Below are positions 1 to 55,790 of a stretch of DNA of 55,790 nucleotides, piece by piece. A program made the translations under genes and the position numbers. Below the pieces are notes generated by a model, which saw only the letters and a list, made by a program, of their open reading frames with translations, was not told where the DNA came from and did no database searches. Each line of letters opens with the position of its first letter. The first letter of the stretch is position 1. Source of the DNA: Prevotella sp. (GTDB lineage: Bacteria; Bacteroidota; Bacteroidia; Bacteroidales; Bacteroidaceae). The stretch spans positions 17,930 to 73,719 of the forward strand of contig JAFLSF010000002.1 in the NCBI GenBank assembly GCA_022511045.1, written 5' to 3'.

Positions 1-99
1 GGACTATCCACACCCTTAACGCGGACTATCCACACCCTTAACGCGGACTATCCACGTCATGGGTGCGGACTATACACACTCCATCGCCCAACCGTTGGG
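1..99. repeat. 22-bp periodic palindrome array A (enters from left window edge)
   Basis: Units 1-20 (truncated), 21-42 gcggactatccacacccttaac, 43-64 gcggactatccacgtcatgggt, 65-86 gcggactatacacactccatcg. A different palindrome, cccaa-ccg-ttggg, lies at 87-99. Dyad centres at 27, 49, 71 and 93 are spaced exactly 22 bp. Confidence 0.85.
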
Positions 100-14491: not shown

Positions 14492-14603
14492 AAGATGGTC
14501 AATAATGCCAAAGTGTTTTTATGTGTCATTTTAACGTTATTTTGCCTATATACTCAAATTTTTCTGCCTTTCTTTTTCTTTGATATAAGTTCCTTTTTGG
14601 TAG

Positions 14604-14705
14604 TAACAGGTAACAGATATATTTTATAGTCTCTCAGGTACCGCATGTATATAATACATGCGGTCCTATAGGACTTAAAAATATTGTTCCATCTGTTACC
14701 TGTTA
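14604..14705. repeat. 102-bp MITE-like palindromic element with 15-bp perfect terminal inverted repeats
   Basis: taacaggtaacagat (14604-14618) and atctgttacctgtta (14691-14705) are exact reverse complements. Internal ccgcatgtat-ata-atacatgcgg at 14641-14663. Confidence 0.75.
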
Positions 14706-14714
14706 TCAATTTTT

Positions 14715-14888
14715 GTGGATAGTCCACGTGCTTAGTGCGGATAGTCCGCACTGCAAGTCCGGATAGTCCGCACTATCGGTGCGCATACTCCGCACTATTG
14801 ACGAGCCGTATTCTCGTCATCAACCATCAACAAAGTGCCGCTTTGTTAGTGACAAATTCTTGATTCGTCATAGACGAGGACTATGTGC
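14715..14888. repeat. 22-bp periodic palindrome array B
   Basis: Centres at 14721, 14743, 14765, 14787, 14809, then +29 to 14838, 14860, 14882. Cores: gtggatagtccac, gcggatagtccgc, ccggatagtccgc, gcgcatactccgc, gagccgtattctc, aacaaagtgccgctttgtt, gacaaattcttgattcgtc, gaggactatgtgc. Confidence 0.85.
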
Positions 14889-14971: not shown

Positions 14972-15463
14972 ATGAAGGAACCCATCAAGATAACAGAACA
15001 AGACCGGCAGTTTATGCGCGAGGCCATCAGACTGGCCAGCGAGAGTGTCAGAAAGGGTGGGGGGCCGTTTGGTGCCGTCGTTGTGAGGAATGGTGCTGTT
15101 GTGGCTGCCAGTGCTAACAGCGTAACGATAGACAATGACCCTACGGCTCATGCTGAGGTGAACACCATTCGCGAGGCTTGTCGGAAGTTAGGAACATTTG
15201 ATCTCTCAGATTGTGTTATCTATACCTCATGCGAACCTTGTCCCATGTGTTTAGGGGCTATCTATTGGTCTCGCATCAGTCGCATCTATTACGGCAACAC
15301 GCGCAAAGATGCACGGGAGATAGACTTTGCTGACGATTTTATCTATGACGAGTTGGGAAAACCACTTTCCGAACGTTCGGTACCCATCATTCCACTATTA
15401 CGCGATGAGGCTTTGGAGAGTTTTCGCCTCTGGTCGGAGAGTGATGCAAAGAAAAGTTATTAG
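14972..15463 (+). CDS. Nucleoside deaminase (guanine deaminase-like CMP/dCMP family)
   Basis: HAEVNTIREAC and PCPMCLGAIYW zinc-binding motifs. Confidence 0.9.
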   Translation: MKEPIKITEQDRQFMREAIRLASESVRKGGGPFGAVVVRNGAVVAASANSVTIDNDPTAHAEVNTIREACRKLGTFDLSDCVIYTSCEPCPMCLGAIYWSRISRIYYGNTRKDAREIDFADDFIYDELGKPLSERSVPIIPLLRDEALESFRLWSESDAKKSY

Positions 15464-41959: not shown

Positions 41960-42012
41960 GCTTCTTTTTGTTCTTTGTGGCAACTGATATGGGTATGGGT
42001 CTTGCTCTTGAT

Positions 42013-42114
42013 GAGGATAGGCCTCACGGTTGACGTGTGTAGGCCTCGTGGCTTGTGAGAATAGTCCTCGTCAGTCGTGCGGATAGTCCTCACTATATGT
42101 GCCTCTATGAGAGG
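42013..42114. repeat. 22-bp periodic palindrome array D
   Basis: gaggataggcctc, gtgtgtaggcctc, gagaatagtcctc, gcggatagtcctc at centres 42019, 42041, 42063, 42085. Then cctc-tatga-gagg centred at 42108 (1 bp off phase). Confidence 0.8.
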
Positions 42115-55627: not shown

Positions 55628-55790
55628 AACAAATCCCTGATTTGTTGCCAACGAAGCAACACTTTGTCGTCGATAAACCGTACTTTCGTCAGCCACGAAA
55701 GTACGGTTTGTTATTACTGAGCCTATTGTATACCTTTTGTCTCCCTCTGATATACAAGTTGTATACGCCTGGAATACAACTTGTATACAC
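55628..55790. repeat. 22-bp periodic palindrome array E (runs off right window edge)
   Basis: aacaaatc-cct-gatttgtt (centre 55637), aacgaagcaacactttgtc (55659), tatacaagttgtata (55758), atacaacttgtat (55780). A 15-bp-arm hairpin centred at 55692 lies 66 bp (3 x 22) before 55758. Confidence 0.75.
55675..55709. terminator. 15-bp perfect inverted repeat, probable terminator of the C69 dipeptidase gene
   Basis: aaaccgtactttcgt-cagcc-acgaaagtacggttt followed by gttatta. Confidence 0.65.

What the first reader, a model, noticed from the sequence alone, without database searches (positions are those of the whole stretch)
14715..14888. Array of sequence-divergent palindromes locked to a 22-bp period (best locus of a dispersed family)
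Seen directly: consecutive dyad centres at 14721, 14743, 14765, 14787 and 14809 are exactly 22 bp apart. After one 29-bp step the series continues at 14838, 14860 and 14882. The units are not copies of one sequence. Arms change together: gtgga-tag-tccac and gcgga-tag-tccgc are both perfect dyads, then aacaaag-tgccg-ctttgtt, then gacaaat-tcttg-attcgtc (one non-pair in the arms). The last unit, gaggactatgtgc, is the TAG-type core in reverse orientation. Spacing and symmetry are kept better than sequence, as expected if structure (hairpins in RNA or cruciform DNA) or a same-face series of dimer binding sites (22 bp is about two helical turns) is under selection. Related arrays occur at four other intergenic loci here. 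The closest precedent I can name is the BrickBuilt tandem-repeat MITEs of Porphyromonas gingivalis, but I cannot confirm any relationship. Function is inference.
Basis: partly seen in the sequence, partly recalled or inferred. Interest (0 to 1): 0.88.

Follow-up and report, generated by a model that had tools for sequence, protein, structure and literature searches.

The report
Helically phased palindrome arrays in Prevotella
This Prevotella genome, and several relatives, carry dozens of short intergenic DNA arrays built from palindromes exactly 22 bp (two helix turns) apart; each species uses its own sequence but the same spacing, which suggests that helical phasing of a DNA-protein platform, rather than a particular sequence, is what is kept.

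Summary
The array is real and belongs to a large dispersed family. In this 2.1 Mb Prevotella genome, BLAST finds more than 40 places per unit group. Sequence-defined core words lie 22, 44, 66 or 88 bp apart in 73 of 74 cases, never 21 or 23. A sequence-blind detector gives 19 arrays at period 22 against 0-2 at 15 other periods. Other Prevotellaceae (G016, G211, RGIG9954, Alloprevotella RGIG4970) have their own dispersed families with unrelated sequences and the same 22-bp step. Twelve G211 copies differ at 27% of positions without one gap over 100 bp.

The structural reading is only partly supported. Dyads are real, but compensation is strong at one arm position and absent at others. G.T mismatches do not exceed A.C on the sense strand (63 vs 64), and orientation to genes looks random. 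I favour double-stranded DNA with one half-site per ~11-bp turn as a protein or topology platform, working like E. coli BIMEs, spread as a repetitive element. The binder is unknown. BrickBuilt, RAYT/REP and CRISPR membership each failed at least one test. No description of this was found in the paper library.

The parts
14710..14819 (+). Array units 1-5, centres 14721, 14743, 14765, 14787, 14809 (TAG-core class, then a GCATACTCC variant, then GACGAG-N7-CTCGTC)
14820..14826 (+). 7-bp local near-duplication (TCAACCA) that makes the 29-bp step
   Evidence: sister arrays lack it
14827..14870 (+). Array units 6-7, centres 14838 and 14860 (AACAAAG-N5-CTTTGTT and GACAAAT-N5-ATTCGTC)
14871..14884 (+). 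Degenerate half-unit (GACGAGGACTATGTGC); not a dyad by score
1..82 (-). Related array, near-identical tandem units GGACTATCCACACCCTTAACGC; continues left of the window across an assembly gap
42008..42095 (+). Related array, four units of the GAGGATAGGCCTC / TAG-core classes
55637..55790 (+). Related array of seven units (ACGAAAGTACGGTTTGT-type, then GTATACAANTTGTATAC-type) running to the contig end; more than 40 matching places in the genome

Best explanation
These are lineage-specific interspersed repeats made of double-stranded-DNA half-sites, one per helical turn (about 11 bp) in alternating orientation, so that dyads recur every 22 bp on one face of the helix. Shown: strict phasing, dispersal as multi-unit blocks, unrelated sequences but the same period in several Prevotellaceae, no sign of selection for RNA pairing. 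Inferred: an oligomeric DNA-binding or DNA-wrapping protein (a nucleoid protein, gyrase as on E. coli BIMEs, or an unknown dimer) uses the array as a phased platform, so that indels which break phase are removed while base changes are tolerated. The arrays spread by copying of blocks and by local tandem expansion, with edge units decaying.
For: Core-word distances 22 x63, 44 x7, 66 x2, 88 x1, one exception at 90. Period-22 excess against 15 other periods; the same detector gives 17 vs 1-9 in G016, and 14 vs 1-6 in RGIG9954 and 15 vs 1-3 in RGIG4970. Species-specific families with no cross-matches: G016 38 matches, 0 in seven other genomes; G211 71 matches at more than 40 places, 0 in seven others; steps 44 of 49 at 22 in G211 and 20 of 20 in G016. 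Zero gaps in 12 copies at 73% identity over 100 bp. AT/GC alternation peaks at 11 bp, not 22, in four of five species (5.6-9.1 vs 0.5-1.6), although each alone is only p about 0.01-0.1 against column-permuted arrays. Half-sites match both neighbours and similarity decays along the array. Sense-strand G.T = A.C. Literature: about 11 bp is commonly read as the pitch of negatively supercoiled DNA (PMC4132750); gyrase has a 10.75-bp periodic motif and binds BIME-2 (PMC6379681).
Against: No binder identified. The 11-bp composition signal is absent in RGIG4970. Arrays lie in convergent, tandem and divergent gaps and flanking genes are almost never shared between species, so no conserved site-specific role. 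Tandem units inherit their length, so a constant period alone could be history. Not all sampled genomes show arrays: G004, G008 and the sampled families outside the genus had no clear excess, and G003 only three places.
Confidence: 0.5

Rival explanations
1. Selfish or neutral repeats: minisatellite-bearing MITE-like elements that copy themselves with no host function. Palindromes are kept by template-switch correction between arms, and the period is merely inherited.
For: Multi-unit blocks with the same unit order at different loci (L004/L005 205 bp at 85%, L001/L002 113 bp at 92%). Near-identical tandem expansion at window 1-55. Edge units decay. In G211 the array sits in a longer discrete element, with alignments of up to 236 bp between copies and TGTAAA motifs at -93/+87 in most copies oriented alike. 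No shared flanking genes across species.
Against: Neutral decay should give indels: none in 12 copies at 27% divergence. Sequence families with no cross-matches share one period. No transposase or target duplication tied to the arrays was found; Y1_Tnp is absent here. In this genome flanks are generally not shared.
Confidence: 0.32
2. RNA hairpin arrays: transcribed tandem hairpins that stabilise mRNA 3' ends, terminate transcription or bind an RNA-binding protein.
For: Both strands fold far better than shuffles (z -5.4 and -6.2). Convergent gaps are over-represented in this genome (9 of 19 vs 14 of 74 gaps). Arrays tend to lie closer to gene 3' ends than to starts.
Against: No G.T excess over A.C on sense strands. 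Orientation of the asymmetric core relative to genes looks random. Arm positions 7, 9 and 10 show no compensation. The minimum-energy fold nests units rather than forming serial hairpins. Exact 22-nt spacing has no obvious reason in RNA. No terminator-like site and no Rfam family.
Confidence: 0.12
3. Operator arrays of one specific dimeric regulator (phage-repressor-like cooperative sites about two turns apart) that controls a dispersed regulon.
For: 17-bp dyads with roughly 5-bp half-sites and fixed 22-bp centre spacing; covariation confined to a few positions is more like recognised half-sites than a stem.
Against: Several very different half-site sequences occur within one array. Flanking genes are not shared between species. 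Many arrays sit in convergent gaps away from promoters.
Confidence: 0.06

Closest known systems
BIMEs / REP sequences of E. coli (bacterial interspersed mosaic elements)
   Same: Intergenic, dispersed in dozens of copies, palindromic, clustered, often near gene 3' ends; a DNA-level role in topology is documented for BIME-2 (gyrase, PMC6379681)
   Different: REPs are 20-40 bp palindromes in super-families tagged by GTAG or CGTC (PMC3733652); here units are 17-bp dyads locked to a 22-bp step, with several unit sequences in one array and no RAYT-type Y1 transposase found in this genome
BrickBuilt minisatellite/MITE of Porphyromonas gingivalis
   Same: Bacteroidales, species-specific, intergenic, tandem units of about two helical turns, dispersed copies
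   Different: 23-nt unit, leader and tail with GAGACCTTTGCA-type terminal repeats, up to about 23 copies (PMC4596501); here a 22-bp unit, mostly 3-8 units, no such termini in the window, and arrays free of leader/tail in this genome
464/PgRS MITEs of P. gingivalis
   Same: MITE-type elements holding internal tandem repeats
   Different: 41-nt repeats and IS5-type terminal repeats (PMC4596501)
Plasmid iterons and the lambda operator triplet (from general knowledge, not tested)
   Same: Cooperative protein sites spaced about two helical turns apart
   Different: Few loci, one binding sequence, next to the binder's own gene

Membership tests
BrickBuilt MITE | 23-nt tandem unit | tested here: not met
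   Unit step 22 in 73 of 74 core distances (multiples) and no 23
BrickBuilt MITE | Terminal repeats GAGACCTTTGCA / TGCAAAGGTCTC | tested here: not met
   Two 2-mismatch hits in the window, fewer than chance, none at an array; only the window was scanned
BrickBuilt MITE | Conserved leader and tail around the repeats | tested here: not met
   Long alignments between loci are confined to arrays in this genome (output partly cut); a MITE-like frame does exist in relative G211
REP/BIME with RAYT (REPtron) | Y1 transposase (PF01797) in the genome, flanked by the palindromes | tested here: not met
   No PF01797 match in this genome (89% complete) nor in RUG546 and G003; weak partial hits in RGIG9954 and RGIG4970 on contig positions away from arrays
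REP/BIME with RAYT (REPtron) | Unpaired GTAG or CGTC tag at one end of each palindrome | not tested
   Not examined systematically
REP/BIME in the functional sense | Clustered palindromes in intergenic DNA, dispersed genome-wide | tested here: met
REP/BIME in the functional sense | Gyrase, IHF or Pol I binding | not testable with these tools
   Needs ChIP, footprinting or topoisomerase mapping
CRISPR array | Direct repeats separated by unique spacers | tested here: not met
   Units are contiguous (17-bp dyad + 5-bp linker) and recur at many loci
Known structured RNA family | Rfam covariance-model match | tested here: not met
   0 matches in the window and in six array loci at gathering thresholds
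Plasmid- or phage-borne repeat | Same sequence on known plasmids, phages or viral contigs | tested here: not met
   No match

The most novel reading that the evidence does not exclude
A Prevotellaceae-wide class of chromosomal element in which helical phasing is conserved while the recognised sequence turns over from species to species: a fast-evolving DNA-binding or DNA-wrapping protein and its dispersed phased arrays co-evolve, giving each species its own chromosome-organising code, a bacterial analogue of satellite turnover.
Probability: 0.25. Interest if true: 0.87.

Novelty: new variant of a known kind. Interest (0 to 1): 0.73.

Why it matters
If the period is what selection sees, these arrays offer a natural experiment on helical phasing in living bacteria: many unrelated sequences, one geometry. 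They occur at up to dozens of loci in a genus that is abundant in rumen and human gut, they break assemblies, and no description was found in the paper library. Finding the bound protein would say whether Bacteroidales have a BIME-like topology system or a selfish satellite with species-level turnover.

Tried and rejected
RAYT/REPtron: PF01797 search, absent here. BrickBuilt termini: absent in the window. Rfam: nothing. Plasmids, phages, viral contigs: nothing. Conserved gene neighbourhoods across species: only one or two shared flanking families per species pair, so site-specific regulation across species was dropped. Orthologue of the deaminase next to the array, for an empty-site comparison: only about 40% identical relatives, unusable. 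A first dyad-distance count with strict arms showed no peak in the 55-kb window alone; only intergenic restriction, looser dyads and more DNA showed it. tRNA genes give false 22-bp dyad pairs. Mirror pairing of whole arrays as one long hairpin: weaker than local or across-linker pairing except in G016 and RGIG4970.

Full report
Observation. The reported dyads are in the sequence at the stated coordinates. Units 1-7 hold. The eighth, at 14882, is a degenerate half-unit that does not score as a dyad. The 29-bp step is an ordinary 22-bp step plus a 7-bp near-duplication (TCAACCA before TCAACAAAG); sister arrays elsewhere in the genome lack it.

Chance. In 441.6 kb of this genome, intergenic dyads show 40 pairs at 22 bp, against a mean of 3.5 at other distances and 1.3 +- 1.1 in Markov-simulated intergenic DNA, with peaks at every multiple of 11 up to 77. 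A detector that knows nothing of the sequence, only complementarity at a fixed period, finds 19 arrays at period 22 and 0-2 at fifteen other periods. Words that define the TAG-type core, chosen by sequence and not by spacing, lie 22, 44, 66 or 88 bp apart in 73 of 74 cases; the exception is 90, and 21 and 23 never occur.

A dispersed family. BLAST with this array finds 54 matches at more than 40 places in the 2.1 Mb genome, among them the array just left of the window. The array at the right end of the window finds 76 matches at more than 40 further places. Many arrays lie at contig ends, and one is split by an assembly gap, so lengths and copy number are underestimated. At least seven classes of unit occur (GCGGA-TAG-TCCGC; GCGGAGTATGCGC; GAGGATAGGCCTC; GACGAG-N7-CTCGTC; ACAAAG-N5-CTTTGT; ACAAAT-N5-ATTTGT; GTATACAANTTGTATAC), often several in one array and always in register. 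Blocks of several units recur in the same order at different loci (205 bp at 85% in L004/L005). Long alignments were confined to the arrays, though the listing was cut.

Other species. The exact core pair is almost confined to this species (one of 398 other genomes of the genus). A scan of one genome per species gave other rumen Prevotellaceae with two cores in 22-bp register. Following these, Prevotella sp. RGIG9954 has a large family with unit GAGAAAGAACGGCTTTTTCTC around AATTCTCGAGAGAATT, and Alloprevotella RGIG4970 has about 40 arrays of ACCNTAGGGATAGTTCGCCGTA. Two complete or near-complete genomes of the same genus, taken without regard to the core, have further families: G016 (TTGCAATTTGACGCAAATTGCA-like; 38 matches) and G211 (GAAACGGTCCGTTT; 71 matches at more than 40 places). 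Neither family matches any of seven other genomes. Steps are 22 in 20 of 20 (G016) and 44 of 49 (G211) cases. Bias must be admitted: the database query contained the 22-bp spacing and the detector was mostly run at 22. The period controls in G016, RGIG9954 and RGIG4970 show that 22 exceeds neighbouring periods there. In G003 evidence is thin (three places); in G004, G008 and the sampled genomes of other families no clear excess was seen.

Spacing outlasts sequence. Twelve G211 copies aligned over 100 bp have 73% mean pairwise identity and no gap, whereas the flanks carry many gaps. In most G211 copies oriented alike, TGTAAA motifs sit exactly at -93 and +87 from the first core, although the left spacer is scarcely conserved. 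Alignments of up to 236 bp between copies show that in G211 the array is part of a longer MITE-like element; no target duplication was established.

Structure or protein sites? Covariation of arms is real but limited. Over all distinct units, arm positions 4-8 pair far above column shuffles, but the register was chosen by symmetry. On units fixed by their core, only position 5 covaries strongly, 6 and 8 weakly in a broader set, and 7, 9 and 10 not at all. On the sense strand of co-directional gaps, G.T and A.C mismatches are equal in three species (23/23, 16/13, 24/28); an RNA stem would favour G.T. (In divergent gaps of RGIG9954, read on the locus strand, G.T exceeded A.C, 25 vs 9; with no sense strand there I give it little weight.) The core faces either way relative to genes. 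Half-sites match both neighbours, within the unit (0.72) and across the linker (0.65), and similarity decays along the array. AT/GC alternation peaks at 11 bp rather than 22 in four of five species. Together this describes one half-site per helical turn in alternating orientation, a double-stranded-DNA feature.

Context. Arrays are intergenic. In this genome they are over-represented between convergent genes (9 of 19 vs 14 of 74 gaps), but other species show other mixes. Flanking genes are hardly shared between species. ORF calls are naive, so this part is indicative. In the window the array lies upstream of a cytidine/deoxycytidylate-deaminase family gene (14972-15463).

Mechanism. I think it most likely that the arrays are phased DNA platforms for an oligomeric or wrapping protein, spread as repetitive elements. 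E. coli BIMEs, which gyrase binds (PMC6379681), are the best functional model. The step from phasing to protein is inference and no binder is known. The main rival is a selfish repeat with inherited period; the gap-free divergence in G211 is the best evidence against pure neutrality, but strain-level data are needed.

Known or not. BrickBuilt (PMC4596501) is the nearest relative in kind within Bacteroidales, but unit length, termini and leader/tail do not match. REP/RAYT fails on the transposase. Seven searches of the open paper library found no account of such arrays in Prevotella; subscription papers were not searchable, so novelty is provisional.

Noticed in passing
14562-14597: A 36-bp AT-rich segment (CTTTCTTTTTCTTTGATATAAG region) recurs near arrays in L002 and about 1 kb from the array in L005; it may be another small dispersed element.
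   Followed up: partly
14601-14706: An inverted repeat AACAGGTAACAG ... CTGTTACCTGTT encloses an 11-bp-arm palindrome centred at 14652 just left of the array; AACAGGTAACAG also lies beside the array in L002.
   Followed up: no
1-55: Near-identical tandem units run up to the window start, where the scaffold has an N gap inside the array: a recently expanded, assembly-breaking minisatellite.
   Followed up: partly
126-1238: Protein with an N-terminal CoiA (competence) domain match next to the first array.
   Followed up: no
L103-L118 (RGIG9954), near position 1500: Arrays are mirrored about a central AATTCTCGAGAGAATT palindrome, so that left and right units point opposite ways.
   Followed up: partly
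L155 and L157 (RGIG4970): The same array and the same flanking gene occur at two contig places: a duplicated segment or a redundant contig in the bin.
   Followed up: no
L048:4049-4180 (Sphingomonas): Six near-identical 22-bp units GCCGGGACTATCCGGGCCAGAC in an unrelated phylum; probably an ordinary minisatellite that shares the core word by chance.
   Followed up: no
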